A DNA stretch of 64,000 nt from Massilia sp. PAMC28688 (GTDB lineage Bacteria; Pseudomonadota; Gammaproteobacteria; Burkholderiales; Burkholderiaceae_D): positions 744,001 through 808,000 of the forward strand of contig NZ_CP080378.1 in assembly GCF_019443445.1 (NCBI RefSeq). The letters are read 5' to 3'. The position numbers and the translations under genes are program-made. The notes under the pieces are model-generated. The model did no database searches and was not told the DNA's origin. It was given only the letters and a program-made list of their open reading frames with translations. Each line of letters opens with the position of its first letter. Positions within the stretch are counted from its first letter, which is position 1. Of the stretch, positions 10,353 through 62,168 are shown in pieces.

Positions 10353-10503
10353 CAATCAATTTCCTCCCACCAGGGTCAGACCACTTAAACGTCAAAAAAT
10401 CAATTTCCTCCAGCCAGGGTCAGACCACTTAAAACCCACCAGGGTCAGACCACTTAAACGTCAAAAAATCAATTTCCTCCAGCCAGGGTCAGACCACTTA
10501 AAA
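10353..10503 (+). repeat. 44-bp repeat cluster A, four cores, plus orientation
   Basis: Four copies of the core CCAGGGTCAGACCACTTAAA start at 10370, 10414, 10439 and 10483. Copies 1-2 and 3-4 are exactly 44 bases apart and share the second block AATCAATTTCC; copies 2-3 are 25 bases apart because one unit has lost its second block. The core contains the 9-base palindrome GGTCAGACC. Cluster B lies in opposite orientation 255 bases to the right. Confidence 0.92.
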
Positions 10504-10757
10504 CCGGCAAAAGCAACTTTCAAAATCCTTTTTAGATCATCGAGCAAATCGGCGAATAAGATTTGCTGCCGGGCCCTCTCCGGTGCTGGATTCGAGGATT
10601 GAATTTCGTTACAGACCTTCATCGATCCCAATGATTTTATCCAGCACGTTCGACGGCTGGCAATTTAGTTCGAAAAATTAAAATTCCCCGGCAACTGCTT
10701 GCTGTGTCGGCAATTTCCGCGGCCAGATCGCGGCCGAAAACGTTACTTTGGCCGCGC
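10504..10757. other. Spacer between inverted repeat arms
   Basis: This roughly 255-base segment separates repeat arms A and B. By eye it is richer in A and T than the flanking genes and holds no reading frame with family resemblance. Short runs such as AAAATTAAAATTCC and several CGGCAA words occur. It could be the body of a small non-autonomous element or decayed sequence; neither is shown. Confidence 0.4.
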
Positions 10758-10876
10758 TTAAGTGGTCTGACCCTGGCTGGAGGAAATTGATTTTTGAAGG
10801 TTTAAGTGGTCTGACCCTGGCATTGGGAAATTGATTTTCGACTGTTTAAGTGGTCTGACCCTGGCATGGGGAAACT
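10758..10876 (-). repeat. 44-bp repeat cluster B, three cores, minus orientation
   Basis: Three inverted cores (TTTAAGTGGTCTGACCCTGG and a one-base-shorter first copy) end at 10776, 10820 and 10864, exactly 44 bases apart. Each is followed on the plus strand by GGAAATTGATTTT or a near variant, the reverse of the second block. Together with cluster A they form a long imperfect inverted repeat. The last unit ends about 30 bases from the WS/DGAT stop codon, so hairpins here could also act at the 3' end of that transcript. Confidence 0.92.
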
Positions 10877-10903
10877 GATGGCCGGCGCTGGGCGGGATTG
10901 GGG

Positions 10904-12361
10904 TCAGTCCCAGTCGCCCATCAGCGCCAGCAAGACCAGCTTTTCGAATTCCGGTGCGAAGCGCTTGATGATGTTGTCCGGATCCTGCACCAGGGCGTCG
11001 TCGGTAACGATGCCGAACTGTACCCCGCCGTTGTAGCTCAGGATCGATACGCCTATGCCGATATCGCCCGACTGCGGCACCCAGAACATGCACTGGTCGA
11101 GCTGGCTGCCGGCGATATACAGCGGCTGCTGCGGCCCCGGCACATTGCTCATCACGGCCGTGGCCTTGCGCGCGAAATAATTCTGGATTTCGTTTTGCAC
11201 CTGCCTGGGCGTCGCCCCCAACACGCCCAGCACCGACATCGCCACCAGCGCGGTATAACTGCCTTTGAGCTCATTCATGCGGTGCCGCACTTCGAACAGC
11301 CGCGCCACCGGGTTTTCCAGCCCCACCGGCAACACCAGCGGCACCAGCCCGAAGGCGTTGCCCAGCTTTTGCTGGCGGCTCGATTTGCGCAGGTTCACCG
11401 GCACCATCACGCGTACATCGCAGTCATGCGCGACGTCGTCGCCCTTGCCCTTCAGATATGCGCGCAAAGCCCCGGCCACGCTGGCCATGAGCACGTCGTT
11501 GATCGAGCAGCCATAGGCCTTGCTGATGGCCTTGACTTCCGCCAGCGGCAGCGGCTCGCTCCAGGACACGTGCTTCCTGCCGTTCGGCTTGCCCTTCAGG
11601 CGCGTGGGCGTATCCTCTTCCATCGTGGTGAGCTTGACCGCATCCATGGCCAGCTGGCCCGCGGTCTGCCCGATGGCGGTGATCTGCCCCGGCAGCTTGT
11701 CCAGGTCCGTCATCATCGTCATCGATTTGATGAAGACGTTGGACGACAGGTCGATCGCCTTGATCGAGGCCGCCGTCACCGGCAGCATGATCTGCTCCCA
11801 CGGGTTTTCTTCCGCCGCCGCGGCCGCACGGGGCGAGGGCGAATGGTCTTTTTCATCCGGCGTCTTGTCGAACATGGACATGAACACCCCCACCAGCGCC
11901 ACGCCATCGGCAATGCAGTGGTGGATGCGGATGATCAGGGCCTGGCGCAGCTTGCCGTCTTCGCCCCGGCAGTTGTCGACCAGGTGCATTTGCCACAGCG
12001 GCTTTTCGGGATTGAGCGGCTCCTGCGACAGCTTGCCCACCAGTGCCTGCAGTGCCGGCTTGTTGCTGGCCCCGCCCTTGCCGGAGGCCAGCGCCGTGTG
12101 GATGACGTGGTCATCCAGGTCCACTTCCTGCTCTTGCCACCAGGACCCGGACAGGTCGCTCACCACCCGGCTGCGAAACCGCTTGTACACCAGGAAGCGC
12201 GATTCAAGCGCTTGCTTGAGCCCGGTCACGCTCACCGGCTTGCTCAGCATGGACACGCCCACGATCATCATCAGGTTGCCGTCGGAATCCATCCTCAGCC
12301 AGGCCGTATCGACCGTCGACATCTTCTTGCGGCTAAATCCGGACCGGGGCTTCGACAACAT
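10904..12361 (-). CDS. Wax ester synthase / diacylglycerol acyltransferase (WS/DGAT)
   Basis: This 485-residue protein joins acyl-CoA to fatty alcohols or diacylglycerol to make wax esters or triacylglycerol at the membrane. The catalytic HHxxxDG is present as HHCIADG (147-153) in the acyltransferase N-domain. The C-terminal WS/DGAT domain has NDVLMASVAGALR and the PLYIAGS segment. The ATG at 12361 has AGAGGAGA upstream. It is divergent from an acyl-CoA-binding protein gene, which could supply its substrate. Storage-lipid synthesis is the likely role; which acceptor is preferred cannot be read. Confidence 0.93.
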   Translation of the reverse strand: MLSKPRSGFSRKKMSTVDTAWLRMDSDGNLMMIVGVSMLSKPVSVTGLKQALESRFLVYKRFRSRVVSDLSGSWWQEQEVDLDDHVIHTALASGKGGASNKPALQALVGKLSQEPLNPEKPLWQMHLVDNCRGEDGKLRQALIIRIHHCIADGVALVGVFMSMFDKTPDEKDHSPSPRAAAAAEENPWEQIMLPVTAASIKAIDLSSNVFIKSMTMMTDLDKLPGQITAIGQTAGQLAMDAVKLTTMEEDTPTRLKGKPNGRKHVSWSEPLPLAEVKAISKAYGCSINDVLMASVAGALRAYLKGKGDDVAHDCDVRVMVPVNLRKSSRQQKLGNAFGLVPLVLPVGLENPVARLFEVRHRMNELKGSYTALVAMSVLGVLGATPRQVQNEIQNYFARKATAVMSNVPGPQQPLYIAGSQLDQCMFWVPQSGDIGIGVSILSYNGGVQFGIVTDDALVQDPDNIIKRFAPEFEKLVLLALMGDWD

Positions 12362-12397
12362 GGAGCGTCTCCTCTAAAGAACTGCTATGGATCTATT

Positions 12398-12409
12398 ATT
12401 GCGCGCAAT
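12398..12409. promoter_or_regulatory. 12-bp palindrome between WS/DGAT and ACBP genes
   Basis: ATTGCGCGCAAT is a perfect palindrome in the 131-base divergent intergenic region, with a related TTGCGC word about 10 bases to the right. It is placed where a shared operator would sit. No regulator is identified; it may also be chance in GC-rich DNA. Confidence 0.3.
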
Positions 12410-12492
12410 ATGGCAGTTGTTGCGCTAAGATTCTAGGCACATTACTCTAGCGACAATATCCGAGCAACATTTTTTAGCCAACAGGAGATTTT

Positions 12493-12747
12493 ATGAGTTT
12501 GCAAGAACAATTCGACCAGGCCCAGGCCGATTCCAAGAACCTGTCCGAGCGTCCCGACAACATGACCTTGTTGAAGATTTATGCGCTCTACAAGCAGGCC
12601 TCGGCCGGCGATGTCGACGGCAAGCGCCCCGGCTTTACCGACATGGTCGGGCGCGCCAAGTACGATGCCTGGGATGGCCTCAAGGGCATCAGCAAGGAAG
12701 ACGCCATGCAGCAGTACATTGACCTGATCGAGGAACTGAAGGGCTGA
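12493..12747 (+). CDS. Acyl-CoA-binding protein
   Basis: This 84-residue protein matches the four-helix ACBP fold over its length. Typical segments are MTLLKIYALYKQAS, the KRPGFTDMVGRAKYDAWDGL region and the C-terminal AMQQYIDLIEEL. It binds medium- and long-chain acyl-CoA esters in the cytoplasm and buffers or delivers them to enzymes. ACAGGAG lies upstream of the ATG. ACBPs are uncommon in bacteria, and the divergent WS/DGAT gene suggests delivery of acyl-CoA to storage-lipid synthesis. Confidence 0.95.
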   Translation: MSLQEQFDQAQADSKNLSERPDNMTLLKIYALYKQASAGDVDGKRPGFTDMVGRAKYDAWDGLKGISKEDAMQQYIDLIEELKG

Positions 12748-12760
12748 TCAGGCCCCGGCC

Positions 12761-13042
12761 TCAGGCGGAACCGAACACCTTCTTCATGTTCTCTTCCACC
12801 TTGGACTGGATCATTGGCGCCATGGCGCTCATCAGGAAGCCGAGACGGATGAACATCTCGGCTTTTTTCTTTTCCAGCGTCAGCTGGCCCTGCACGCCGC
12901 TGCGCTCGAAGTGCAGGGTATCGCCTTCCCATTCGCACGCCAGGCCATATTCTTCGGAAATGCTGTCGGCCACCTTTTGCGCCGCTTCGCGCGCTTTTTT
13001 CGGCGTCAGTTTGTGTTCGTGAATGATGCTGATGTCTGCCAT
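12761..13042 (-). CDS. Polyhydroxyalkanoic acid system (PHA granule) family protein
   Basis: About 93 residues, starting MADISIIHEHKLT at 13042. It fits the PHA-granule regulatory family: an N-terminal H(K)L-KKAREAAQKVAD helix, the central LACEWEGDTLHFERSGVQGQL strand pair and the closing EENMKKVFG helix. These proteins are associated with polyhydroxyalkanoate systems; exact biochemical role is unclear. It is convergent with the acyl-CoA-binding gene and lies about 3.4 kb from the PHB depolymerase. GGAAAG lies upstream of the ATG. Confidence 0.85.
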   Translation of the reverse strand: MADISIIHEHKLTPKKAREAAQKVADSISEEYGLACEWEGDTLHFERSGVQGQLTLEKKKAEMFIRLGFLMSAMAPMIQSKVEENMKKVFGSA

Positions 13043-13121
13043 GTGATGCTTTCCAAAGTCGATTGGCGACATGATACCACCGCCTCTGCTCGCTCTATAA
13101 TGACGGCTTGTCATCTCCATC

Positions 13122-14387
13122 ATGCTTCCCATGTCCGATATTGATCTGATTGCCGCCATCCTGTTTGGTCTGGCGCTGGCTCATACCTTCGCCACCAAGA
13201 CCTTTGAACGCCTGGCCGACCGCTTTCCGCGCCACGCCGGCCTGTTTCACTTCATGGGCGAGGTGGAGGTGGTGTTCGGCCTGTGGGCCATGGTGCTGAT
13301 CGTGGCCATGGCGCTGGTGGCAGGCGGGGCCCAGGCCATTCAGTATGCCGAGACGCGCACCTACACCGAACCCCTGTTCGTGTTTGTCATCATGGTGGTG
13401 GCGGCCTCGCGCCCGGTGCTCGAGACCATTCGCGCCCTGGTCGACACGGTGGCGCGCGTGGTGCCGCTGCGTACCGCGCTCGTGCGTGTATGGCTGTGCC
13501 TGGCCCTGGTGCCATTGCTGGGCTCCTTCATCACGGAGCCGGCCGCCATGACGCTGGCCGCACTCATGCTCGCACCCCTGGTGTTCCGCCAGGACCAGGG
13601 AATGCCGGAATGGCTCAAGTATGCAGCACTGGGGGTGCTGTTCGTGAATGTGTCGATCGGCGGCACCCTGACCTCGTTCGCCGCGCCACCGGTGCTGATG
13701 GTGGCCAAGACCTGGGGCTGGAGCAGCGCCTTCATGGCCGCCACTTTCGGCTGGAAGGCGGCCCTGGCCGTGCTGGTCAATGCCACCGCCGTCACCTGGC
13801 TGCTGCGTGCTCACATTCGCGATACCCTGCCTGCCCCGGACGCGTCGCTGTTGCCGGTGCCGCTGGCAGTCGCTGCCATCCACCTCATGTTCCTGGCCTC
13901 GGTGGTCCTGTTTGCCCACCACCCGGTCATCTTCCTGGGCCTGTTCATGTTTTTCCTCGGCTTTACCAAGGCCTACGAGCAGTACCAGACCCGGCTCATC
14001 CTCAAGGAAGGCTTGCTGGTGGGCTTCTTCCTGGCCGGGCTGGTGGTGCTGGGCGGGATGCAGCGCTGGTGGCTGCAGCCCATCGTGTCCGGCCTGGAGC
14101 CGACCGCCCTGTTTTTCGGCGCCACCGCGCTCACGGCCATTACCGACAATGCCGCCCTGACCTATCTTGGCTCCCTCATCGCCGGCATGAGCGATCAGGC
14201 CAAATACATGCTGGTGGCCGGCGCCGTGGCCGGCGGCGGCCTGACCGTGATTGCCAATGCCCCCAATCCGGCCGGCGTGTCGCTGCTGCGCGACGGCTTC
14301 AGCGACGAATCGATCGGCGTGGGTGGCCTGCTGCTGGGCGCCCTGCCGCCCACCCTGGTGGCCATGCTGGCCCTGTACCTGCTCTGA
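13122..14387 (+). CDS. Putative Na+/H+ antiporter family membrane protein
   Basis: This 421-residue protein consists almost wholly of hydrophobic helices, roughly 11-12. Conserved-looking loops include FITEPAAMTLAALMLAPL (about 133-150), NVSIGGTLTSFAAPPVLMV (about 177-195), ALTAITDNAALTYLGSL and NAPNPAG. This architecture fits the uncharacterised Na_H_antiport_2 family; ion specificity is not shown. A TATAAT at 13096 may be its -10 element. Either ATG 13122 or ATG 13131 could start translation. It is divergent from the PHA-system gene. Confidence 0.82.
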   Translation: MLPMSDIDLIAAILFGLALAHTFATKTFERLADRFPRHAGLFHFMGEVEVVFGLWAMVLIVAMALVAGGAQAIQYAETRTYTEPLFVFVIMVVAASRPVLETIRALVDTVARVVPLRTALVRVWLCLALVPLLGSFITEPAAMTLAALMLAPLVFRQDQGMPEWLKYAALGVLFVNVSIGGTLTSFAAPPVLMVAKTWGWSSAFMAATFGWKAALAVLVNATAVTWLLRAHIRDTLPAPDASLLPVPLAVAAIHLMFLASVVLFAHHPVIFLGLFMFFLGFTKAYEQYQTRLILKEGLLVGFFLAGLVVLGGMQRWWLQPIVSGLEPTALFFGATALTAITDNAALTYLGSLIAGMSDQAKYMLVAGAVAGGGLTVIANAPNPAGVSLLRDGFSDESIGVGGLLLGALPPTLVAMLALYLL

Positions 14388-14559
14388 ACGGCCGTCGCCC
14401 TTTCGTGGCCCAGCCGGCGCCCCGCCCGAGGGCCAAGCGCTGACATTGAGGCACGTGCGGGCCGGCCACCTTCTGGATCGGTCGGGCCACTGCGGCCCAA
14501 TGCGGGCCACCGCGGCGCGGCGCCCGCATTTGCTTATGTGGATTGTATCTAAGCCTGAT

Positions 14560-14588
14560 TTGTGGGAAAAAGCGAATTGCCTTAAAAT
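14560..14588 (+). promoter_or_regulatory. Candidate sigma-70 promoter of fdxA
   Basis: TTGTGG (14560-14565) and TAAAAT (14583-14588) are separated by 17 bases and lie 70 bases before the fdxA start codon. The spacing is ideal and both hexamers have four or five consensus bases. Confidence 0.55.
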
Positions 14589-14657
14589 ACAGTGCTTTGC
14601 TGTTGTTGGCGGAGGGTCCATCCTCCTGCGCGGCACCCTTTCACTGATAGGACTGTT

Positions 14658-14981
14658 ATGACCCACGTTGTCACCGAATCGTGCATCAGCTGTCGTTACA
14701 CCGATTGCGTCGATGTATGCCCGGTAGATTGTTTCCGGGAAGGCCCGAATTTTCTGGCGATCGATCCTGACGAGTGCATCGACTGCGCCGTCTGCGTGGC
14801 CGAATGCCCCGTCAACGCCATTTACGCGGAAGAAGACGTGCCGGGCGACCAGCAGCAGTTTATCAAGATCAACGTTGACCTGGCCCGCGTCTGGCCATCC
14901 ATTACCAAGACCAAGCCAGCACTGCCGGAAGCGGAGCAGTGGAAGGACGTCAAGGACAAGCTGGACCAGCTGGTTCGCTGA
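14658..14981 (+). CDS. fdxA: Seven-iron ferredoxin (FdxA type)
   Basis: This 107-residue electron carrier has cysteines at 9, 12, 17, 21, 25, 40, 43, 46 and 50, the pattern of Azotobacter-type ferredoxin I with one 3Fe-4S and one 4Fe-4S cluster. The C-terminal extension (KTKPALPEAEQWKDVKDKLDQL) is typical. The ATG at 14658 has TAGGA upstream; an in-frame ATG at 14592 would add unrelated residues. A ferredoxin-NADP reductase gene follows in the same direction after 90 bases and is the likely redox partner. Confidence 0.96.
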   Translation: MTHVVTESCISCRYTDCVDVCPVDCFREGPNFLAIDPDECIDCAVCVAECPVNAIYAEEDVPGDQQQFIKINVDLARVWPSITKTKPALPEAEQWKDVKDKLDQLVR

Positions 14982-15071
14982 TTCTCCAGCCAGCGGCGCC
15001 CCGGGCGCCGGCCGGCCAGCGCGGCCTGTTGCCTAACCGGCGCCGCATGACCATTCTCTGGGAGCAGGCGC

Positions 15072-16178
15072 ATGTCGATCGACCCTTCCCATAACGCCGG
15101 CAACCTTGCTGCCAACAGCAGCTTCGCCGGCGCCATCGACACCGATGCCGTCATCATCGGCGCCGGCCCCGTCGGCCTGTTCCAGGTGTTTGAACTGGGT
15201 TTGCTCGAGATCCGCGCCCATGTCATCGATTCGCTCGGCGCCCCCGGCGGCCAGTGCATGGAACTGTACCCCGACAAGCCCATCTACGACATCCCGGCCC
15301 TGCCCTTGTGCACGGGCCAGGAGCTTACCGACAACTTGCTGCGCCAGATCGCGCCCTTCGCGCCTGCCTTCCACCTGAATCAGGAAGTCACGCTCGTGCA
15401 GCGCCGTGAAGACGGGCGGTTCAACGTCGAGACTTCAGCAGGCACCCGCTTCATTGCCACCACCATTTTCATTGCCGCCGGCGTGGGCGCCTTCCAGCCC
15501 CGCACCTTCAAGGTGGAAGGCATCGATGCCTTTGAAGGCAGCCAGCTGCATTACCGCGTGCGCGACCCGGCCCAGTTCGCTGGCAAGCACCTGCTCATCT
15601 GTGGCGGCGGCGACTCGGCGCTGGACTGGGCCATCAGCCTGGCCGGCAAGGCGGCCAGCGTGACATTGCTGCACCGCCGCGAAACTTTCACCGCCGCCCC
15701 CGCCTCCGTGGCCAAGGCGCGCGCGCTGGCCGAAGCCGGACAGCTCCATCTGCTCACCGGCCAGGTCAGCGCTTTCGAGGCGGACGGCGGCACGCTGAGG
15801 GCCGTGACGGTCAGCGCAAGCGATGGCAGCACGCGCCGCGTGGCGCTGGACATGATCGTGGCGCTGTTCGGCCTGTCGCCGCGCCTGGGGCCGATTGCCG
15901 ATTGGGGCCTGGACCTGGAACGCCGCCAGGTACGGGTGCAAAGCACGGAAAAGTTCGAAACGAATGTGCCCGGCATCTTCGCCGTGGGCGACATCAATAC
16001 CTACCCGGGCAAGAAAAAGCTGATCCTGTGCGGCTTTCACGAGGCGGCGCTGGCCGCCTACGGCGCCGCACCCTATATTTTCCCCGGCAAGAAAATCCAC
16101 ATGCAGTACACCACCACCTCCCCTTCCTTGCACAAGATCCTCGGCGTGGACACACCCGAACCCGGCCAGCCCGACTAA
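15072..16178 (+). CDS. Thioredoxin-reductase-like ferredoxin-NADP(+) reductase
   Basis: This 368-residue flavoenzyme has the N-terminal FAD motif GAGPVG (30-35), the [19 protein letters not shown] segment and the NAD(P)H-binding [11 protein letters not shown] near residue 177. The FAD-closing segment [21 protein letters not shown] comes late. This is the homodimeric TrxR-like FNR class lacking the CxxC of thioredoxin reductase. It shuttles electrons between NADPH and ferredoxin in the cytoplasm. GGGAG precedes the ATG. The upstream 7Fe ferredoxin is the obvious partner. Confidence 0.93.
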
Positions 16179-16373
16179 ATCGGGAACTGACATCGTTCAG
16201 TAAGCTGAAAGCAACAAGTGCACGGGCGTGCCACCCATTTTTTCTATGCGTGCGGTAGGTCCCTAACGCACTGCAGCATTGTGTGTTAAAACTGCTTCGC
16301 GATCACGGATTCTTGTACAGAAATCAAACGGTGTTCTTTTCCCCGTTAGCTCATTTCTAACAGGAACTCAAAA

Positions 16374-16404
16374 TTGCAAATACCCCTTTTAAATAGCCTA
16401 TAAT
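16374..16404 (+). promoter_or_regulatory. Possible sigma-70 promoter of phaZ
   Basis: TTGCAA (16374-16379) and a perfect TATAAT (16399-16404) lie 19 bases apart in an AT-rich stretch, about 55 bases before the phaZ start. The spacing is longer than ideal, so the -35 assignment is weak while the -10 is convincing. Confidence 0.45.
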
Positions 16405-16459
16405 TAATCAGCGCACCTGCAAACGATTGCACGGTCCAGATTATCTTGAAGGAATATGT

Positions 16460-17695: not shown

Positions 17696-17707
17696 TCCCG
17701 TCTTGCC

Positions 17708-17744
17708 AAAGCGGCGCCCCGGCAACGGCAGCGCCGCTTTTTTT
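17708..17744 (+). terminator. Intrinsic terminator of phaZ
   Basis: AAAGCGGCGC (17708-17717) pairs with GCGCCGCTTT (17731-17740) and is followed by a T run. It starts 12 bases after the phaZ stop. Confidence 0.85.
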
Positions 17745-17757
17745 CGCCCATGCCCCT

Positions 17758-17884
17758 CAATCAATTTCCCAAAACCAGGGTCAGACCACTTAAACGCACC
17801 AAAATCAATTTCCTATAGCCAGGGTCAGACCACTTAAACGCACCGAAATCAATTTCCTATAGCCAGGGTCAGACCACTTAAATG
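17758..17884 (+). repeat. 44-bp repeat cluster C, three cores, plus orientation
   Basis: Cores CCAGGGTCAGACCACTTAAA start at 17775, 17819 and 17863, exactly 44 bases apart. Each is preceded by AATCAATTTCC, and the bases between blocks differ slightly (CGCACCAA, CGCACCGA). All three point the same way. It sits just beyond the phaZ terminator, in the 384-base gap before rsxB; the rest of that gap shows only a short GATCTGC-rich run at about 18002-18030. Confidence 0.92.
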
Positions 17885-18046
17885 CGTTTTTGTGAATTTT
17901 GAACGTCTTACATATTCACGTTGGGAATACCTGAATCCCTAGTCCACATCTATGCCGATTGCTGGAACGTATGACGGCCGTTTGCGCCTGCGCTTGCTGC
18001 CGATCTGCTGATCTGCCGCTGATCTGCTGCTGCGACCTGGGCCGAC

Positions 18047-18052
18047 TATAAT
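18047..18052 (+). promoter_or_regulatory. Probable -10 element of rsxB
   Basis: A perfect TATAAT lies 28 bases before the GTG start. No good -35 hexamer is found at the right distance. Confidence 0.4.
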
Positions 18053-18079
18053 GTCGCTTTCCGCAACCACCGCACCGCC

Positions 18080-18745
18080 GTGACTCGCTCCCTCGCTGAC
18101 CAGGTCGAAGACCTTCTGCCGCAAACCCAGTGCACCAAGTGCGGGTATGCCGCCTGCCGCCCATACGCGGAAGCGATCGCCGAAGGCACGGCCGATATCA
18201 ACCAGTGCCCGCCCGGCGGCCTTGAGGGCGTGGCACGCCTGGCCAAGCTGCTCGGCCGCGCCGTCATCCCCATCAATCCGGTCAACGGCATCGAACGCCC
18301 CCGCCCCGTCGCCTTTATTGACGAAGCCCTGTGCATTGGCTGCACCCTGTGCATCCAGGCCTGCCCGGTCGATGCGATCCTGGGCGCCTCCAAACAGATG
18401 CACACGATCCTGCCAAGCCTGTGCACCGGCTGCGACCTGTGCGTGGCCCCCTGCCCGGTCGACTGCATCTCGATGATGCCGGTCACGGGCGAGCGCACCG
18501 GCTGGGATGCATGGTCCCAGGAGCAGGCCGACGCCGCCCGCGCCCGCCACGATTTCCGCACCATGCGCCTGGAGCGCGAACGCGCCGAAAATGATGCGCG
18601 CCTGGCGGCCAAGGCGGTGGCCAAGATGAAGGAAGTGACAGCCGAAGCGAGCAACACGCCGGCAGAACTGGCCGAAAAAGAACGCAAACGCGCCATCATT
18701 GCCGCAGCCATCGAGCGCGCACGCCTGAAAGCGCAGGGACAATGA
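18080..18745 (+). CDS. rsxB: RnfB/RsxB-like electron-transport iron-sulfur protein
   Basis: This 221-residue protein has the 4Fe-4S domain CTKCGYAAC (Cys18, 21, 26, 43) and two ferredoxin clusters at Cys85/88/91/95 and Cys115/118/121/125. It lacks the N-terminal membrane helix of full RnfB, so it should be soluble. A charged helical tail rich in Arg, Glu and Ala follows (about 150-221). The start is GTG. No other Rnf/Rsx subunit lies nearby. The stop overlaps the nth start in ATGA, so the two are cotranslated; a link to loading or reducing the Nth iron-sulfur cluster is speculation. Confidence 0.9.
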
Positions 18746-19410: not shown

Positions 19411-19434
19411 ACATCGACTGAGGACGGAGACGAC

Positions 19435-19713: not shown

Positions 19714-19730
19714 TCGGCCTACAGCGCAGA

Positions 19731-20810: not shown

Positions 20811-20839
20811 CTTGCCTTCCTAAGTGATAAACAGCGTGA

Positions 20840-21958: not shown

Positions 21959-21973
21959 CGGCGCCTAAGGATT

Positions 21974-23473: not shown

Positions 23474-23487
23474 ATTTTGTGCCGCCT

Positions 23488-48484: not shown

Positions 48485-48604
48485 TACTTTCCCTAAACCA
48501 GGGTCAGACCACCAATCGTATAGACAATTAGTGGTCTGACCCTGGCACGAGGAAATTGATTTTGGCCCGTTTAAGTGGTCTGACCCTGGCAATAGGAAAT
48601 TGAA
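48485..48604. repeat. 44-bp repeat cluster D with a converging pair
   Basis: A plus core CCAGGGTCAGACCAC (48498-48512) faces a minus core GTGGTCTGACCCTGG (48531-48545) across an 18-base loop, forming a perfect 15-bp inverted repeat that contains GTATAGACA (48518-48526). A second minus core ends at 48589, again exactly 44 bases from the previous. The cluster lies between the convergent diguanylate cyclase and alcohol dehydrogenase genes and could also act as a terminator-like hairpin. Confidence 0.92.
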
Positions 48605-48621
48605 ACGAGACTATAAGGACG

Positions 48622-49782
48622 TTAAGGCGTCAAGATGACCTTGCGGCATTCGTCTTCCTTCTGGTCAAACATCTTGTAGCCCTCCGCCGCCTGTGACAGA
48701 GGCAGGCGATGCGAGATGATTTCGTTGGGATGCAGCTTGCCTTCCTCGATCGCTTCCAGCAGCTCGGGCATGTATTTCTGTACGTGGGTCTGCCCGGTCT
48801 TGAAGGACAAGCCTTTTTCAAATACGTCGCCAAACAGGAAGCCGTGGATGAATCCCGCATACAGACCCGGCACGCTGATGGTGCCGCCTCGGCGCGTGGC
48901 GGCAATGCACTGGCGCAGGGTCTTGCCACTGCTGCCTTCGAGCTTCATGTTGGTCATCACCGTTTCGACCGTGCTGCCCTTGGCTTCGAAACCGACAGCG
49001 TCGATCGATGCATCCACGCCCCGGTAGTCGGTGTTCTCGACGATGTATTCGGCTGCATCCACCTCGTCGAAGTTGACGGGGATGACGCCATACTTTTCAC
49101 GTGCGAACTCCAGGCGAAACGGATGGTGGTCGACCATGAAGATCTTTTCAATGCCCAGCATGCGCGCCGAAGCAGCAGCCATCTGTCCAACCGGGCCTGC
49201 ACCGAAAATCGCCAGACTGCCGCCCTGCCCCACACCGGTGTTGACCACAGCCTGGTAACCCGTTGGCAGGATGTCGGACAGGAACAGCACCTGTTCGTCG
49301 GTGAGGGTGATGGGGATCTTGATCGGCCCCACGTTCGCCTTGGGCACACGCACGTATTCGGCCTGGCCGCCCGGAATGCCGCCGTACAGGTGGCTGAAGC
49401 CGAACAGCGCCGCGCCCGAGCGCAGCTTCTTCTTGTTCATGATGGAGCCGCGGTCCGGATTGGTCTTCTCGCAGGCGGCAAACGCTTCCATGTCGCAGAA
49501 AAAGCAGGTGCCGCAAGCGATCACGAAGGGCACCACGACACGGTCGCCCTTCTGCAGCGCGGTCACGTTGGGGCCGGCGTCCACCACCTCACCCATGAAC
49601 TCGTGACCGAGGATGTCGCCGCTTTCCATGGCGGGGATCTTGCCGCGGTACATGTGCAGGTCCGAGCCGCAGATGGCAGTGGCGGTGACCTTGAGCAAGA
49701 TGTCATCCGGTTCCTGCAGAATCGGATCAGGTACGGTGTCAACCTTGACGTCGTGGCTGCCGTGATAGGTAAGTGCGCGCAT
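48622..49782 (-). CDS. Zinc-dependent alcohol dehydrogenase, formaldehyde-dehydrogenase-like
   Basis: This 386-residue enzyme has the catalytic-zinc segment [12 protein letters not shown] then GHEFMGEVV, and the structural-zinc cysteines in [15 protein letters not shown]. The NAD-binding Rossmann motif is [16 protein letters not shown]. It resembles the glutathione-independent formaldehyde/alcohol dehydrogenase branch with a long insert ([18 protein letters not shown]). Substrate is not identified. AAGGGGA precedes the ATG. It stands alone between repeat cluster D and the pyrimidine genes. Confidence 0.9.
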
Positions 49783-51146: not shown

Positions 51147-51162
51147 AAGTCCTCTGCAGGGT

Positions 51163-54050
<2,888 letters not shown>

Positions 54051-54109
54051 AGATCGATCTCCAGGAAAAGTGGTCCGCCGAAGCTTTGTATCTGAACTGA
54101 CGACTGGCC

Positions 54110-55390: not shown

Positions 55391-56757
55391 TATGCAGCCC
55401 CCACTGTGGATTGGATATCGTTATGAATGGCGATTGCCGCCAGCTTCCCGTGCTGCACCGCCTGCACCGTCAGGTCCTGCCCGGGTGCCACGCAGTCGCC
55501 CCCCGCATAGATGCCTGGCAGCGCCGTGCGGAAGTGGCCGTCGACGTTGATCTTGTCGCCGCTGCGGGTGATGTGACGCGCCATCTCGTCCGACAGGCCC
55601 ACCGCATCCATGCTCTGGCCAATGGCCTTGAACACCGCATCGGCCGCGATCTCGATAAAGCTGCCCATGCCGGTCAGGCGGCCGTCGATCATGCGCGTCT
55701 CTTCAAAACGCATGCCGCATACGCGGCCGGCGTCGTCCAGCAGCACGTCGAGCGGCGCGGCCCAGGTTTTGATGCGCACCTGGTTCATCTTGGCGATATC
55801 CTGCTCGTGATGCGTTGCAGTCATGGATTCGTAACCGCGGCGGTAGACCAGCGTCACGTCTTCTGCCCCCATGCGCTTGATCTGCACCGCCATGTCGATG
55901 GCCGTATTGCCGGCCCCGATCACGATGGCGCGGCGCGGCACCGGCAGCGATGCCAGGTCGCTCGCCTGGCGTAGATGTGCGATGTAGTCCACCGCTGCCA
56001 TCAGTCCCGGCGCATCTTCGCCGGTCAGGCCAAGCTGGCGGCTCGCATTCAGGCCCAGACCCAGGAACACGGCATCGTACCGGGCATGCAGGTCCTGAAG
56101 ATGAAGGTTCACACCCAGCGTGTGGCCATGGCGCACCTCGATGCCGCCAATGGAAAGCAGGAACGCCACTTCCTGCTGCGCAAAGTCGCCAGGCAGCTTG
56201 TACTTGGCAATCCCGTATTCATTGAGTCCGCCGGACTTTTGACGCGCCTCGAACACCACCACGTCGTTGCCCAGCATCGCCAGCCGGTGCGCGCACGACA
56301 GGCCAGCCGGACCGGCACCGACCACCGCGATGGTCTTTCCGGTGGCCGGCGCGCGCTCGAACGGGTGCGCGGCAAAGCGCGCGTTGTCGAGCGCATAGCG
56401 CTGCAGCAGGCCGATTTTGACCGGCTGCCCTTCTTCATCATGATTGCGCACGCAGGCGTCTTCACACAGGATCTCGGTGGGGCACACGCGCGCGCAGGCG
56501 CCACCAAAGATGTTTGCCTTCAGGATGCCCGCCGCCGCGCCGTTGATGTTCTGGTCGTGGATGTTGCGGATGAAGCTTGCCACGTCGATCTCGGTGGGGC
56601 AGATGCGGGTGCACGGCGCGTCGTAGCAGTACAGGCAGCGCGCCGCTTCAATGGCGGCCCGGCGCTCGGTGAGCGGCGGCGCCAGGTCGGTGAAGTGCTC
56701 GGCCAGTTCACTGTTCGATCCACGCGCCTGCGGCAGGTGTTTGAGTGATTCAATCAT
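55390..56757 (-). CDS. preT: NAD-dependent dihydropyrimidine dehydrogenase, PreT subunit
   Basis: This 455-residue flavoprotein takes electrons from NADH for PreA. It resembles the glutamate-synthase small subunit: N-terminal iron-sulfur cysteines in CLYCYDAPCTRICPTEID and CARVCPTEILCEDAC, the FAD motif VVGAGPAGLSCAHRLA (about 148-163), and the NAD motif VIGAGNTAIDMAVQIKRMGA (about 290). The C-terminal GIYAGGDC segment closes the FAD site. It forms one translational unit with preA. Confidence 0.95.
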   Translation of the reverse strand: MIESLKHLPQARGSNSELAEHFTDLAPPLTERRAAIEAARCLYCYDAPCTRICPTEIDVASFIRNIHDQNINGAAAGILKANIFGGACARVCPTEILCEDACVRNHDEEGQPVKIGLLQRYALDNARFAAHPFERAPATGKTIAVVGAGPAGLSCAHRLAMLGNDVVVFEARQKSGGLNEYGIAKYKLPGDFAQQEVAFLLSIGGIEVRHGHTLGVNLHLQDLHARYDAVFLGLGLNASRQLGLTGEDAPGLMAAVDYIAHLRQASDLASLPVPRRAIVIGAGNTAIDMAVQIKRMGAEDVTLVYRRGYESMTATHHEQDIAKMNQVRIKTWAAPLDVLLDDAGRVCGMRFEETRMIDGRLTGMGSFIEIAADAVFKAIGQSMDAVGLSDEMARHITRSGDKINVDGHFRTALPGIYAGGDCVAPGQDLTVQAVQHGKLAAIAIHNDIQSTVGAA

Positions 56758-56815
56758 GTGCGTTCCAGGGTCCTGTTATGGTTTTTTATGTCATCCACTA
56801 CTGCTGCGTGAAATA

Positions 56816-58318
56816 TTATTTCATCTGCGGGAACGCGAATTCCACGCCCGCGCTGGCCGTATTGGGCCAGCGCTGCATCACCGCCTTGTGGCGCGTGTAG
56901 AACCGCACGCCTTCAGGGCCGTAGGCGTGATGGTCGCCAAACAGGCTGCGCTTCCATCCGCCAAAACTGTTGAATGCCATCGGCACCGGCAGCGGCACAT
57001 TCACCCCCACCATGCCGACCTGGATCTGGCGCACGAACTCGCGCGCGGTGCCGCCGTCGCGGGTGTAGATCGCCACCCCGTTGCCGTACTCGTTGGCGTT
57101 GATCAGGTTGACTGCGGTGGCCACGTCCGGCGCGCGCACCACGCACAGCACCGGTCCAAAGATCTCTTCCTTGTAGATCGTCATGTCGGGCGTGACGTGG
57201 TCAAACAGCGTGCCGCCCACGAAGAAGCCGTTCTCGCAGCCGGCCACCTTGCACTCACGCCCATCGACCACCAGGGTCGCGCCCTGCTCCACCCCTTCGC
57301 CAATCAGTTTTTCAATGCGCTGCTTGGCCGCCGCCGTCACCACGGGCCCCATTTCGGCATCGGCCGCCATGCCGTCGGCGATCTTGAGGGCGGCCGTGCG
57401 TTCGGCCAGCGCGCCAATGAGCTTGTCGCCTGAGTCGCCCACCGCCACCACGACCGAAATGGCCATGCAGCGCTCGCCCGCAGAACCGAAAGCGGCCCCG
57501 ATCAGCGCATCCACCGCCATGTCCATGTCGGCGTCCGGCATCACCACCATGTGGTTCTTGGCGCCGCCCAGGGCCTGCACGCGCTTGCCGTTGGCGGTGC
57601 CGCGCGAGTAGATGTATTGAGCGATTGGCGTGGAGCCGACAAAGCTGATGGCCTGCACATCGCGGTGTTCGAGCAGCGCGTCCACGGTCACCTTGTCGCC
57701 CTGGACCACATTGAACACGCCGTCCGGCAGGCCGGCATCCTTGAGCAGCTTTGCGTGCAGCAGCGAGGCCGAAGGATCACGCTCGGACGGCTTGAGCACG
57801 AAGGTATTGCCGCAGGCGATAGCGACCGGGAACATCCACATGGGCACCATCACCGGGAAGTTAAACGGCGTGATGCCAGCCACCACACCGAGCGCCTGGC
57901 GCATGGACCAGGCGTCGATACCGCGCGAAATCTGGTCGGTGAATTCGCCCTTGAGCAGATGTGGAATGCCGACGGCGAATTCCACCATCTCGATCCCGCG
58001 TGCGACCTCGCCCTGTGCATCGCTGAAGGTCTTGCCATGTTCGCGCGTGAGCATGGCCGCAAATTCGTCCGTATGCTCCTGGCACAGCTGCAGATACTTG
58101 AACAGCACGCGCGCGCGCGTCAATGGCGGCGTGGCCGACCAGGCCGGGAAAGCTGCGGCTGCTGCGGCGACGGCGGTGTCGACTTCTTCGGCCGTGCCCA
58201 GCGCCACCCGGGCACACGGCACGCCTTGGGCCGGGTTGAACACGTCGGCGTAGCGGCCGCTGGCCGTGTCGACCAGGGCGCCGTTGATGTAATGCGAGAT
58301 CGTTTCGAGATTGCTCAT
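56816..58318 (-). CDS. mmsA: CoA-acylating (methyl)malonate-semialdehyde dehydrogenase
   Basis: This 500-residue aldehyde dehydrogenase converts malonate semialdehyde to acetyl-CoA, or methylmalonate semialdehyde to propionyl-CoA, with NAD and CoA. The catalytic Cys284 lies in [12 protein letters not shown], the form typical of MmsA, and [16 protein letters not shown] is at 149-164. It completes breakdown of beta-alanine and beta-aminoisobutyrate formed by the cluster. It starts two bases after the transaminase stop. Confidence 0.95.
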
Positions 58319-58320
58319 GA

Positions 58321-59637
58321 TTAGTCCAGGTTCTTCAGTACGGTGGCAAGCTTGCCGAACAACTCGTCGATGTGCGCTTTTTCAAGCACCAGCGGTGGCG
58401 ACAGGGCGATGATGTCGCCGGTGGTGCGAATCAGGATACCGTCGGCAAAGGCCTGCTTGAAGGCGCTGAAAGCGCGCGCGCCGGGCTTGCCGTCGATGGG
58501 CTGCAGCTCGATGCCGGCGATCAGGCCAATGGTGCGGATGTCGATCACATGCGGCAGACCCTTGAGCGAATGGACAGCATCTGCCCAGTACTGCTGCATC
58601 GACGCCGCGTGGGTCAGGATGTCCTGCTCCTGGAATACCTCGATGGTCGCCAGTGCCGCGGCGCAGGCCAGCGGATGGCCTGAATAGGTATAGCCATGGA
58701 ACAGTTCAATGCCGGCCGGGCCGTCCATGAAGGTATCGTGAATGTGCTTTTTGGTGAACACGGCGCCCATTGGCACCGTGGCGTTGGTCAAGCCCTTGGC
58801 CACCGTGACCATGTCCGGTTCCACGTCAAAGTAGTCGAACGCGAACGGGGTGGTAAGGCGCCCGAAGCCGGTGATGACCTCGTCGAAAATAAGCAGGATG
58901 CCATGCTTGGTGCACAGCTCGCGCAGGCGCTTGAGGTAGCCCTTGGGGGGAATGAGCACACCGGTGGAACCGGCCACCGGCTCGACGATGACGGCGGCAA
59001 TGGTCGATGCGTCGTGCAGCGCGACGATGCGCTCCAGGTCATCGGCCAGGTGCGCGCCGTATTCCGGCTCGCCGCGGGTGAACGCATTCTTTTCGAGGTT
59101 GTGCGTGTGCGGCAGGTGGTCTACCCCGGGCAGCAGGGGGCCGAAGGTGCGGCGGTTGCCGCCGATGCCGCCGACCGAAATGCCGCCGAAGCCCACGCCA
59201 TGATAGCCGCGCTCGCGGCCGATCAGGCGCGTACGCCCCGCCTCGCCGCGTGCGCGGTGGTACGCCAGCGCCATCTTCAGTGCCGTGTCCACGGCTTCGG
59301 AGCCGGAGTTGGTGTAGAACACGTGGCCGAATTTGTGGCCCGTGTATTCCATGAGCTTTTCGGCCAGGTTGAACGCAGCCGGATGCCCCATCTGGAAAGT
59401 GGGCGCAAAGTCGAGCTGGCCCACCATCTGGCGCACGGCCTCGATGATTTTGGGCTGATTGTGGCCGCAAGGGACGCACCACAAGCCGGCGGTGCCATCG
59501 AGCACGGAGCGGCCGTCCACATCCTTGTAATACATCCCTTCGGCGGAAACGAGCAGACGGGGGTTGGTCTTGTAGTCGCGATTGTTCGTAAATGGCATCC
59601 AGAACGATGCCATTGAGTCGGGTTTTGCCTCGTGCAT
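58321..59637 (-). CDS. Class III omega-aminotransferase (beta-alanine:pyruvate type)
   Basis: About 438 residues from ATG 59637 (GGAGAG upstream; a TTG at 59649 is in frame). The PLP site has [10 protein letters not shown] with Asp252 and the Schiff-base Lys281 in [32 protein letters not shown] is near 145-162. It should move the amino group of beta-alanine or beta-aminoisobutyrate to pyruvate, yielding the semialdehyde used by MmsA. It is the first gene of the operon and is divergent from the MocR regulator. Confidence 0.93.
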
Positions 59638-59671
59638 GAAACTCTCCAATGATTTTTACCGGCAAAAAAAT

Positions 59672-59701
59672 AATTTACCAGTTGGCAAAATGATGATGCA
59701 A
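59672..59701 (-). promoter_or_regulatory. Candidate promoter of the pyrimidine operon
   Basis: Read on the minus strand, TTGCAT (plus 59696-59701) and TAAATT (plus 59672-59677) are 18 bases apart. The region overlaps GTTGGCAAAA (59681-59690), which has an inverted partner GCCAAC at 59751-59756 and a related ACCGGCAAAA at 59658-59667. These could be operator sites for the divergent MocR-type regulator. The gap is 175 bases and noticeably AT-rich. Confidence 0.45.
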
Positions 59702-59812
59702 TAATAGTCAGCAGTACAACTATGGCACATATACACAAACTGCAAAACTCGCCAACCGTATCGGTGGCGCAAACAATACAGTTTGGTGAGGTACTCGCAG
59801 GAGGATGGTTTT

Positions 59813-61243
59813 ATGGATCAGAATGAGGCGCTGTGGCCGGTCCTGGAGATCGATCGCGGCAAGCGCGGCAGCTTGGTTGATCAGATTGTGGCAGCCATCA
59901 GCGACATGGTAAACAGGCGTTCGCTGCGGGTCGGCACCAAAATGCCTTCCGTTAGACGTTTCGCAAAGTGTAATGGCGTGAGCACCTTCACCGTGGTCGA
60001 ATCCTACGACCGCCTGCTCACCCTTGGCCTGCTGTCATCACGCCGCGGCTCGGGTTTTTACGTGGCCCGCAGTGAGGTGACGGCGGCGCCCATGCCCGTT
60101 GCGCTGCAGGCCACGCCGGTTGCCATCGACGCGCTTGCGCCGGACCTGTATTCGGGCGTATCCGATGCCCTGCCGGTGGGCGCCGGCTGGCTGCCGCCTG
60201 AATGGTATGGCGAGACCACCATCCTCGACGCGGTGCGCCACGCCATGAAGATACCGGCCAACCGCCTGCGCGGCTACGGTCATCCGCTGGGGTTTCCCAC
60301 CCTGCGCCAGCATATGGCCACCAGCCTGTCGGCGGAACTGTTCCAGGTCGGCGCCGACCAGATCATGCTCACCAACGGCGCCACGCATGCCTTTGACCTC
60401 ATCCTGCGCACGCTCACCAAGCCGGGCGACACCGTGCTGGTGGAAGACCCGGGCTACAGCAACCTGATCTCGCTGGTGCGCCACCACGGCTGCATCCCGG
60501 TGGGCATCGCGCGCGGTGAACATGGGCTGGACATGGACATGCTCGCGCGCCAAGCTGCAGCCACCCAGCCCAAACTCATGTTCGTCAACACGGTGCTGCA
60601 CAATCCGCTCGGCACCTCGCTGTCGCAGGCGCAGGCGCACCGGCTGCTGGCACTGGCCGAGCAATTCGATTTCTGGCTGGTGGAAGACGATATCTACCGC
60701 GAGCTGGCCGCGCGCGGCGAAGCGTCGCTGGCGGCCATGGACGGCCTGCGCCGCGTGATCCGGGTGGGCAGCTTTTCCAAGACCCTGTCGCCGGTGCTGC
60801 GGGTGGGTTCCATCAGCTGCTCCAATTCGCTGGCGCCGGAACTGCTGCGCGTGAAAATGCTCACCGGCCTGACCACCTCCGAAATCAACGAGCGCGCCGT
60901 GTACCACGCCATCTCGGCGCGCCCCTATCGCAAGATGGTCGAACGCCTGGTCGACCAGTTATCCAGCGCGCGCGAGCGCACCATCGAGCGGCTCGAGGAA
61001 GCGGGCATGATGCCATTGGCGCGGCCGCGCGGCGGCATGTTCGTCAGCGCCGGCTGGGCGCAGGCGCCGGGCGCTTCGCTCAATGGCAAGCTGGCGGCGG
61101 ACCGCGCGCTGGCGGCCGGCATCCTGCTTTCGCCGGGCGAATTCTTTTCGCTGAGGGAGCCGTCCACCGTCTGGTTCCGCTTCAATGCCGCATACGCCGC
61201 CGATGCCCCGGCGCTGACTGCCTTCCTGCAAACGCTACGCTGA
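59813..61243 (+). CDS. MocR-type regulator (GntR helix-turn-helix fused to aminotransferase domain)
   Basis: About 476 residues. An N-terminal GntR winged helix (about 20-85, with GTKMPSVRRFAKCNGVSTFTVVESYDRL split across it) is followed by a class-I aminotransferase-like domain with the PLP Lys323 in SFSKTLSP. MocR regulators sense amino compounds through PLP. AGGAGG precedes the ATG at 59813. Being divergent from the transaminase, it probably controls the pyrimidine operon, with beta-alanine as an attractive effector. Confidence 0.92.
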   Translation: MDQNEALWPVLEIDRGKRGSLVDQIVAAISDMVNRRSLRVGTKMPSVRRFAKCNGVSTFTVVESYDRLLTLGLLSSRRGSGFYVARSEVTAAPMPVALQATPVAIDALAPDLYSGVSDALPVGAGWLPPEWYGETTILDAVRHAMKIPANRLRGYGHPLGFPTLRQHMATSLSAELFQVGADQIMLTNGATHAFDLILRTLTKPGDTVLVEDPGYSNLISLVRHHGCIPVGIARGEHGLDMDMLARQAAATQPKLMFVNTVLHNPLGTSLSQAQAHRLLALAEQFDFWLVEDDIYRELAARGEASLAAMDGLRRVIRVGSFSKTLSPVLRVGSISCSNSLAPELLRVKMLTGLTTSEINERAVYHAISARPYRKMVERLVDQLSSARERTIERLEEAGMMPLARPRGGMFVSAGWAQAPGASLNGKLAADRALAAGILLSPGEFFSLREPSTVWFRFNAAYAADAPALTAFLQTLR

Positions 61244-61251
61244 AAGAGACC

Positions 61252-61914
61252 ATGGCTACTTCCGGAAACGATACCGAAGCGCGCACCGCATCGCAGCGGC
61301 GGATGCAAAATCGCGACAAGCTCGAAGCCGACATCCTCGCCGAAGCGGTGCGCGTGTTTGCCGAAGCGGGCTATGAAGGCGCGTCGATTGCCACCGTGGC
61401 CGAGAATACGGGGTTGTCCAAGCAGAACCTGATGTACTACTTCCCCACCAAGCAGGCGCTGTACCAACGGGTGCTCGACGGCGTGCTCGATGACTGGCTT
61501 GAACGCATGGACAGCCTGGCCGACCCGGAGCGCGAGCCGCGTGACGTGTTACGGGCCTACATCCAGGCCAAGCTGCGCTTTTCGCGCGAGCAGCCGTGGG
61601 CGTCGCGCGTGTATGCCATGGAAGTGATCAGCGGCGCGCAGCTGTATGGAGAGCAGATCCAGAAGCGCGTGGTGCCGCTGCTGCGCAAGGACATCGACGT
61701 ATTCGAGCGCTGGATCGGCGAAGGCAGGATCGGCCAGGTGAACGCCACCCACCTGCTGTTCGCCATCTGGGCGATGACCCAGTCCTACGCCGACTTCGCG
61801 ACCCAGATGGCCCTGGTACTTAATCGCAAGCAATTGTCGAAAAAGGACTTTGATGATGCAGAGAACATGATCACCAACATGGTCCTGGCAGCTGTAGCGC
61901 TCCCGGCCGCATAA
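61252..61914 (+). CDS. rutR: RutR-like TetR-family regulator
   Basis: This 220-residue regulator has a TetR helix-turn-helix (ILAEAVRVFAEAGYEGASIATVAENTGLSKQ within residues 28-60, then NLMYYFPTKQALY) and the YcdC/RutR C-domain (about 95-205), including WASRVYAMEVISGA and IWAMTQSYADFATQM. E. coli RutR binds uracil and governs pyrimidine use. It starts eight bases after the MocR stop, so both regulators are likely made together. Binding of uracil here is inference. Confidence 0.85.
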   Translation: MATSGNDTEARTASQRRMQNRDKLEADILAEAVRVFAEAGYEGASIATVAENTGLSKQNLMYYFPTKQALYQRVLDGVLDDWLERMDSLADPEREPRDVLRAYIQAKLRFSREQPWASRVYAMEVISGAQLYGEQIQKRVVPLLRKDIDVFERWIGEGRIGQVNATHLLFAIWAMTQSYADFATQMALVLNRKQLSKKDFDDAENMITNMVLAAVALPAA

Positions 61915-61924
61915 TTCAGCCTTC

Positions 61925-62168
61925 AAAACAATTTCCTACAGGCGGGGTCAGACCACTTAAACCGACCAAAATCAATTTCCCCACGGCGGGGTCAGACCAC
62001 TTAAACCGCGCAAAATCAATTGTTCCGCGTCATAAGTGGTACCGCTGCGAGGCGTAATACCCCTTCTTCCGGCCAAATTTGTCGGCGATTTCCTGGCCAG
62101 CCTGCGACAGAATCTTAACCGCGAGTGAGGCGGAAAGTTGTATAGACAAAAAGTGGTCTGACCCTGGT
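61925..62168. repeat. 44-bp repeat cluster E, split by a gene fragment
   Basis: Two plus cores GGGGTCAGACCACTTAAA start at 61944 and 61988, exactly 44 bases apart, with AATCAATTTCC-type blocks before each. A minus core GTGGTCTGACCCTGG lies at 62153-62167, preceded by TTGTATAGACAA (62138-62149), the word also found in cluster D. The plus cores here have GGCGGGG instead of CCAGGGT, a slight variant. About 145 bases between the arms may be a coding remnant. Confidence 0.88.
62030..62145 (-). pseudogene. Possible 3' fragment of a gene trapped between repeat arms
   Basis: On the minus strand, a frame ending TAA/TGA at about 62030 reads LSASLAVKILSQAGQEIAD then KFGRKKGYYASQRYHL before its stop. 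The composition looks like a genuine helical C-terminus with a basic tail, but upstream of about 62145 the reading frame runs into the repeat core and unrelated sequence. I cannot name the parent gene. It may be a chance frame. Confidence 0.3.

What the first reader, a model, noticed from the sequence alone, without database searches (positions are those of the whole stretch)
10353..62168. A 44-bp intergenic repeat family with strict register in five clusters
Sixteen copies of a core (CCAGGGTCAGACCACTTAAA or trimmed) occur at 10.4, 10.8, 17.8, 48.5 and 62.0 kb. Tandem neighbours are spaced exactly 44 bases in nearly every case, with a second block AATCAATTTCC at a fixed offset and only about 4 variable bases after each block. 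The core contains the palindrome GGTCAGACC. Such GTCAGAC-type repeats are reminiscent of REP elements spread by RAYT transposases, but I see no such gene in this window, and the fixed period with two blocks is more ordered than ordinary REPs.
Basis: partly seen in the sequence, partly recalled or inferred. Interest (0 to 1): 0.75.

Follow-up and report, generated by a model that had tools for sequence, protein, structure and literature searches.

The report
Facing repeat arrays tied to transposase
The repeats are a species-specific family of short mobile-element-like DNA, with 137 exact core copies in this genome, that go with a domesticated transposase gene elsewhere on the chromosome; most loci are a pair of repeat arrays facing inwards around a stretch of DNA that the other loci do not share, which is an unusual form of a known kind of element.

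Summary
In detail: 16 cores in the window, 0.5 expected by chance. The chromosome has 137 exact cores (70+, 67-). One RAYT gene (Y1_Tnp), 1.8 Mb from the window, is flanked by the same repeats facing inwards. The best-matching RAYT relative has inverted repeats on both sides in 14 of 16 congeners, with related but species-specific cores. So this is the cognate REP-like family of a RAYT. It departs from described REPs and REPINs in four ways. (1) The unit is a bounded 44-mer that does not fold by itself. (2) Units sit head to tail at exactly 44 bp (59 of 73 near neighbours). (3) In 35 of 35 two-strand clusters the arrays face inwards, around 115-345 bp that the clusters do not share. (4) The arms of one locus are no more alike than arms of different loci, while neighbours within an arm are. 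A congener has compact palindromic REPINs of the same family. Blocks lie next to stop codons; at 4 of 9 testable sites a congener has almost nothing there. That the RAYT moves the repeats is inferred; the origin of the middles is open. In passing: 4 of 4 full copies of an IS110 element sit inside this repeat core.

The parts
10360..10516 (+). Left array of block 1: four copies; core spacings 44, 25 (a truncated junction) and 44
10517..10742. Middle of block 1: no match reported elsewhere in the own genome or in 16 congeners (which scored 17 of its 268 own-genome candidates), nor in plasmids or phages
10743..10874 (-). Right array of block 1: three copies, 44-bp spacing, facing the left array
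17765..17896 (+). Array of three 44-bp units just downstream of a predicted stop codon (17695) and a hairpin plus T-run (read by eye); no facing array within 700 bp
48488..48555 (.). Compact inverted pair (REPIN-like; + core from 48501, - core 48526-48542); its 48-nt core (48498-48545) folds at -17.7 kcal/mol, z -7.5
48556..48599 (-). 44-bp unit adjoining the compact pair, 23 bp from the predicted stop codon of the convergent gene 48622-49782
61932..62019 (+). Two 44-bp units downstream of the TetR-family gene (stop at 61914)
62134..62177 (-). Degenerate facing copy (3 mismatches) closing the 61.9-kb block

Best explanation
These are the cognate repeats of a RAYT (REP-associated tyrosine, HuH-type transposase). 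The mobile or template unit is a 44-nt, non-palindromic REP-like sequence, consensus TTTCCTNNNNCCAGGGTCAGACCACTTAAACGCGCCAAAATCAA. Two units in inverted, inward-facing orientation define a block end to end. The RAYT at 2.62 Mb most likely nicks and joins single-stranded DNA at these ends and seeds blocks between genes, where they survive mainly next to stop codons. Single units then grow into head-to-tail arrays by local duplication. SHOWN: the family, its copy number, the 44-nt boundaries, strict inward-facing order, a RAYT flanked by the same repeats, species-specific related repeats at RAYT relatives in congeners, near-absence of anything at some orthologous sites, within-arm but not between-arm similarity. 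INFERRED: that the RAYT moves or copies the repeats, that single-stranded DNA is the substrate, that arrays grow by local duplication, and why blocks sit at gene 3' ends. The origin of the middles is open.
For: 137 exact cores in 5.456 Mb, control 0. Unit edges: information falls to 0.4 bits or less beyond -13 and +20 of the core, in copies without a 44-bp neighbour too. 35 of 35 clusters with both strands start + and end -. RAYT flanked by inward-facing copies. RAYT relatives in 16 of 16 congeners; inverted repeats on both sides of the best one in 14 of 16 (my reading of a repeat listing). CGGGGTCAGACC has 13 or more copies in 13 of 16 congeners (e.g. 154 in G003, 84 in G007), backwards control 0-2; the own 16-mer is absent from 16 of 16 congeners. 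In 20 G003 regions chosen for holding cores, 17 of 34 +/- neighbour pairs are 44 apart, many of them palindromic or nearly so, several with the outer TTTCC. Short gaps in a congener at 739 kb (G006 flanks abut; about 440 bp extra in own), 754 kb (74 bp in G006 vs 636), 792 kb (10 vs 184 in G007) and 1045 kb (40 vs 279 in G007). Adjacent copies in an arm are alike (0.535 vs 0.393 between loci, 0 of 1000 permutations). H87, H89 and Y147 invariant in 10 aligned RAYTs; weak profile match to solved TRANSPOSASE chains such as 2xm3 (E 3.6e-4).
Against: No transposition was observed. The own RAYT scores below NCBIfam's RAYT cut-off (66.8 vs 80). Single units do not fold, although studied RAYTs recognise folded REPs (PMC8266576, introduction read). 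5 of 9 testable loci did not give a clean short empty site: the congeners hold other repeats or larger differences there. In 2 of 16 congeners no flanking repeats were seen at the best RAYT relative, and G005, G009 and G015 have 0, 3 and 5 CGGGGTCAGACC. A test for distinct left and right ends was negative.
Confidence: 0.8

Rival explanations
1. Ordinary REPINs (symmetric palindromic doublets) whose loops have simply lengthened and drifted; each block descends from one palindrome.
For: Congeners G003 and G006 have compact palindromic doublets of the same family; the window holds one compact pair at 48.5 kb; inward-facing order is the REPIN order.
Against: Arms of one locus are no more alike at variable positions than copies from different loci (0.362 vs 0.393; 989 of 1000 permutations at or above observed). 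Middles share little more than controls, do not fold well as a set (mean z -0.87 over 35, best -4.3), and carry no common interior.
Confidence: 0.3
2. Two arrays inserted independently at the two edges of pre-existing intergenic DNA; the middles are ancestral spacer lost in the congeners.
For: Arms independent; trimmed middle G+C 0.53 is like other intergenic DNA in the window, 0.54.
Against: At four loci the flanks of a congener lie 0-74 bp apart, too close for a middle; the 754-kb middle has no reported match in 16 congeners and no convincing alignment in the four nearest. Strict inward order in 35 of 35 clusters needs an extra rule.
Confidence: 0.25
3. MITE-like deletion derivatives of the RAYT element or of another IS.
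For: Same ends as the RAYT locus.
Against: No convincing RAYT remnant in 35 trimmed middles (18 weak hits at E up to 1, 10 shown, best of those 0.046) and no shared interior.
Confidence: 0.05
4. Host-encoded regulatory or terminator repeats maintained by selection, not mobile.
For: 42 of 48 clusters have a predicted stop codon within 110 bp, and few lie between divergent genes (2 of 47 vs 10 of 29 other gaps in the window, p 7.5e-4).
Against: The own core is absent from 16 of 16 congeners and several blocks are missing at orthologous sites; repeat sequence goes with the RAYT lineage. Avoiding promoters explains the placement as well.
Confidence: 0.1

Closest known systems
REP / RAYT (TnpA-REP) systems, 'REPtrons'
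   Same: High-copy extragenic repeats that go with one Y1 HuH transposase gene flanked by inverted copies; species-specific co-variation of repeat and protein.
   Different: The 44-nt unit is not a palindrome and has no hairpin next to a GT(A/G)G head; PMC2817692 (one section and passages seen) reports GT(A/G)G heads and palindromes in all its REPs, and RAYTs meeting its criteria only in gammaproteobacteria.
REPINs (PMC3116915; passages and section 10 part 1 seen)
   Same: Inward-facing inverted pair; compact palindromic doublets of the same family exist in congeners and once in the window.
   Different: Spacers 115-345 bp, not shared and not hairpin-forming as a set; arms not co-varying; arms often direct arrays at 44 bp. 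That paper also describes tandem REP arrays (GI-GIII units at 72 and 112 bp, and two arrays of evenly spaced GI).
BIMEs (E. coli, Xanthomonas)
   Same: Several repeats in both orientations with variable linkers.
   Different: BIMEs alternate orientation (PMC2817692, abstract and section seen); here all + units precede all - units in 33 of 35 two-strand clusters.
IS621 / ISPpu9-type IS110 elements that target REPs
   Same: In this genome an IS110 sits in the repeat core in 4 of 4 full copies, next to a CT dinucleotide; IS621 has a CT core and targets E. coli REPs (PMC11208160 passages). ISPpu9 in REPs: PMC8450116, search listing only.
   Different: It is a passenger on the repeats, not their mover.

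Membership tests
REP (RAYT-cognate) | Many extragenic copies in one genome | tested here: met
   137 exact cores; none of 48 clusters lies inside a predicted gene, one overlaps a predicted gene end by 15 bp
REP (RAYT-cognate) | RAYT gene flanked by inverted copies | tested here: met
   14 of 16 congeners
REP (RAYT-cognate) | Unit is a palindrome that folds as a stem-loop | tested here: not met
   Consensus-like 44-nt unit -0.7 kcal/mol, z 0.62; reverse strand -0.6, z 1.04
REP (RAYT-cognate) | GT(A/G)G head next to the palindrome | tested here: inconclusive
   GTGG lies in the reverse-strand consensus but without an adjoining palindrome, and is not constant in congeners
REP (RAYT-cognate) | Repeat and RAYT vary together between species | tested here: met
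   By comparison of listings, no formal test:
REPIN | Two inverted REPs face inwards | tested here: met
   35 of 35 two-strand clusters; 13 further clusters are one-strand
REPIN | Spacer of set length that completes a hairpin | tested here: not met
   115-345 bp, mean fold z -0.87; exception the compact pair at 48.5 kb
REPIN | Arms of one element co-vary | tested here: not met
RAYT protein | Y1_Tnp domain with HuH and catalytic Tyr | tested here: met
   PF01797 50.1 bits; H87, H89 and Y147 invariant in 10 sequences (the meaning of these residues is recalled)
RAYT protein | NCBIfam NF047646 equivalog cut-off | tested here: not met
   66.8 bits vs 80
RAYT protein | Cleaves or joins its cognate repeat | not testable with these tools
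   needs biochemistry
MITE | Shared interior between copies | tested here: not met

The most novel reading that the evidence does not exclude
A RAYT-linked element that frames DNA of any sequence: non-palindromic 44-nt units assemble into facing arrays of independent ancestry, and the pair captures and carries in unrelated spacer DNA, so that the block, not the palindrome, is what is inserted.
Probability: 0.15. Interest if true: 0.8.

Novelty: new variant of a known kind. Interest (0 to 1): 0.5.

Why it matters
How RAYTs spread REPs is unsolved (the abstract of PMC8266576 calls the dissemination mechanisms poorly understood). This genus offers one RAYT lineage with a compact palindromic form in some species and a non-folding, array-based, long-spacer form in another. 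That could separate the parts of the repeat needed for recognition from those needed for spread, and it gives natural near-empty sites for comparison.

Tried and rejected
Shared interior of the middles: all-against-all BLAST of 35 middles gave only short matches, mostly at the repeat edges; Smith-Waterman of 30 trimmed middles against reversed controls, 99.5th percentile 39 vs 37, mean 23.9 vs 22.4, maximum 43 vs 48. Middles as hairpin loops: mean z -0.87, best -4.3, with 40 shuffles each. Middles as RAYT remnants or copies of other held DNA: none convincing. Only two middles were searched against the whole own genome (one search scored 17 of 268 candidates, all 6). Middle homologous to the congener gap: a raised score against G011 proved to lie in coding DNA, and other middles scored higher; own against G007 middle at the 938-kb site was borderline (43; shuffled mean 28.7, maximum 47). 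Distinct left and right ends: hinted by a few loci, not supported (7 loci of mixed type; 4328 of 10000 permutations as many). Rfam: only a tRNA in 92,003 bases of four sources. Bridge-RNA guide in the IS110: an 8-base match to one repeat strand, 14 of 500 shuffles as good, and a 6-base match to the other, 239 of 500; suggestive only. Papers: searches for RAYT with Massilia, REP-associated tyrosine transposase with Betaproteobacteria, and REP or RAYT with Oxalobacteraceae gave nothing on this family in their listings; only openly licensed papers are held.
Full report
WHAT IS THERE. The chromosome (G000, one contig of 5,455,977 bp) holds 137 exact GGTCAGACCACTTAAA, 70 forward and 67 reverse, against 0 for the pattern read backwards. 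I fetched stretches around the listed places, 291,038 bp with the window and the two RAYT loci; two searches listed 131 of the 137 places. With up to 3 mismatches to a 17-base core these stretches contain 168 copies, 136 exact, in 48 clusters. Degenerate copies elsewhere in the genome were not sought. Two loci that an IS110 interrupts (264-265 kb and the RAYT locus) count as two clusters each.

ANATOMY. Aligned on the core, conservation runs from TTTCC (13 bases before) to CAA and a few T (about 20 bases after), and then falls to 0.4 bits or less per position, also in the 57 copies without a 44-bp neighbour, where TTTCC itself is only moderately conserved. This gives a 44-nt unit, consensus TTTCCTNNNNCCAGGGTCAGACCACTTAAACGCGCCAAAATCAA. 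Units follow head to tail: 59 of 73 same-strand neighbours within 100 bp are exactly 44 apart. A consensus-like unit alone does not fold (z 0.62 and 1.04 for the two strands).

FACING ARRAYS. Thirty-five clusters have copies on both strands; all 35 begin with + and end with -, so the outer copies face inwards; in 33 of them all + copies precede all - copies. The other 13 have one strand only within 3 mismatches. The 35 middles are 115-345 bp long. They show little common sequence beyond controls and no strong folding as a set. Their G+C is 0.51 whole, against 0.62 for the fetched DNA; trimmed it is 0.53, against 0.54 for other intergenic DNA in the window. The middle of the 739-kb block finds only itself in the genome at E up to 1; that of the 10.4-kb block found nothing, which scored only part of its candidates, nor in plasmids or phages.

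ARMS ARE INDEPENDENT. At 11 variable positions, adjacent copies in one arm agree at 0.535 against 0.393 between loci (0 of 1000 permutations as high). Opposite arms of one locus agree at 0.362, not above other loci (989 of 1000 permutations at least as high). This suggests local growth of arrays and speaks against each block being one palindrome kept in step.

PLACE IN THE GENOME. A home-made codon-usage gene finder puts none of 48 clusters inside a gene; one overlaps a predicted gene end by 15 bp. Of 47 with both neighbours, 19 lie between convergent genes, 26 between co-directional and 2 between divergent ones (one of these is half of the RAYT locus). Other gaps of 30 bp or more in the window are 2, 17 and 10. 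A predicted stop codon lies within 110 bp of the outer core in 42 of 48 clusters. The baseline is small and taken from this window only.

THE RAYT. PF01797 finds two genes in the genome. One (251 aa, L033:3552-4307:-) is enclosed by these repeats facing inwards, with an IS110 element in the left array. The other (L034; 40% identical) showed no copy of this repeat in its 4.5-kb stretch. All 16 congeners encode relatives. At the best relative of each (L077-L092), 14 of 16 show inverted or palindromic repeats on both sides with GGGGTCAGA-, GGGGTCTGA-, GGGGACAGA- or GGGGTCCG-like cores that differ by species; L091 (partly N) and L092 do not, and the more distant paralogues (L093-L105) mostly do not (my reading of a listing cut at 14 intervals a locus). 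Some of these genes are broken or partial in the assemblies (L086, L090, L092). CGGGGTCAGACC occurs in 15 of 16 congeners: 13 or more copies in 13, but 0 in G005, 3 in G009 and 5 in G015; controls 0-2. The own 16-mer occurs in none of the 16, and once in one of 43 more distant genomes.

CONGENERS SHOW THE COMPACT FORM. In 20 G003 regions chosen because they hold cores, 17 of 34 +/- neighbour pairs are 44 apart and 9 are 3 apart (one mismatch allowed); several are near-perfect palindromes whose inner stem differs by locus while staying paired, others are imperfect. One folds at -47.4 kcal/mol, z -14.9. G006 has six pairs 36-38 apart. The window's 48.5-kb locus is such a compact pair.

EMPTY SITES. 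Of 10 own clusters tested against 400 kb each of G006 and G007, 9 had both flanks aligned in at least one. Four show a short gap in a congener: 739 kb (flanks abut in G006; 110 bp in G007, with another repeat family), 754 kb (74 bp in G006; 117 bp in G013; but 1.6 kb in G007), 792 kb (10 bp in G007) and 1045 kb (40 bp in G007). Five do not: 761, 806 and 954 kb carry another repeat family (CATCGCCCTCGCGAAGGCGGGGGCCC) in a congener, 908 kb has several kb of other DNA, and 939 kb carries the congener's own version of this family in G007 and a compact pair in G006. So intergenic slots are reused by different families. G006 is listed as 48% complete.

WHAT IT IS. A RAYT-cognate REP-like family, by association and co-variation. 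It is not a textbook REP (unit not palindromic) nor a textbook REPIN (long unshared spacer, arms not co-varying). Mobilisation by the RAYT is inferred. The origin of the middles is the real open question.

NAME OF THE ORGANISM. Not given and not established. Among the best 80 of 579 RAYT relatives in named genomes are five Massilia records, with many other proteobacteria; any genus name is therefore a guess.

LITERATURE. PMC3116915: passages and section 10, part 1. PMC2817692: passages and one section. PMC8266576: outline with abstract, introduction and one later section. PMC3686654: outline with abstract. PMC8049555 and PMC11208160: passages. PMC3733652: a term search without hits. PMC8450116 (ISPpu9): search listing only.

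Noticed in passing
G000 120398-121408, 264181-265191, 354311-355321, 2619266-2620276 (L254-L257, L033): All 4 full-length copies (100% protein identity; a fifth match is weak) of an IS110 element sit inside the core of this repeat, next to the same CT dinucleotide and in the same orientation to the repeat, as read from the printed loci. IS621 likewise targets E. coli REPs with a CT core (PMC11208160 passages). Its 183-bp leader holds an 8-base match to the repeat.
   Followed up: partly
L134-L153 (G007) and L154-L173 (G006), e.g. sites orthologous to window 17.7 and 61.9 kb in G006: A second repeat family in congeners, CATCGCCCTCGCGAAGGCGGGGGCCC with up to 4 mismatches: 30 clusters in 400 kb of G007 and 6 in G006, in G007 mostly +/- pairs; none found in the own stretches fetched. 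A paralogous RAYT locus in G007 (L105) has a similar motif on one side.
   Followed up: partly
L048 near 1350896 and L056 near 2308984-2309020: Related copies with core TGGTCAGACCACTTGG or TTAGC, about 36 bp apart in L056, next to the 44-bp family.
   Followed up: no
L045, L052, L055, L058, L060, L066, L068: Outer edges of a second kind: a C-rich stretch ending CCCCGGGGTCAGACC or similar instead of TTTCCTNNNNCCAGGGTC.
   Followed up: partly
L071, G000 5373393-5373730: Longest array: eight units in one orientation, spacer letters nearly the same, as expected from local duplication.
   Followed up: no
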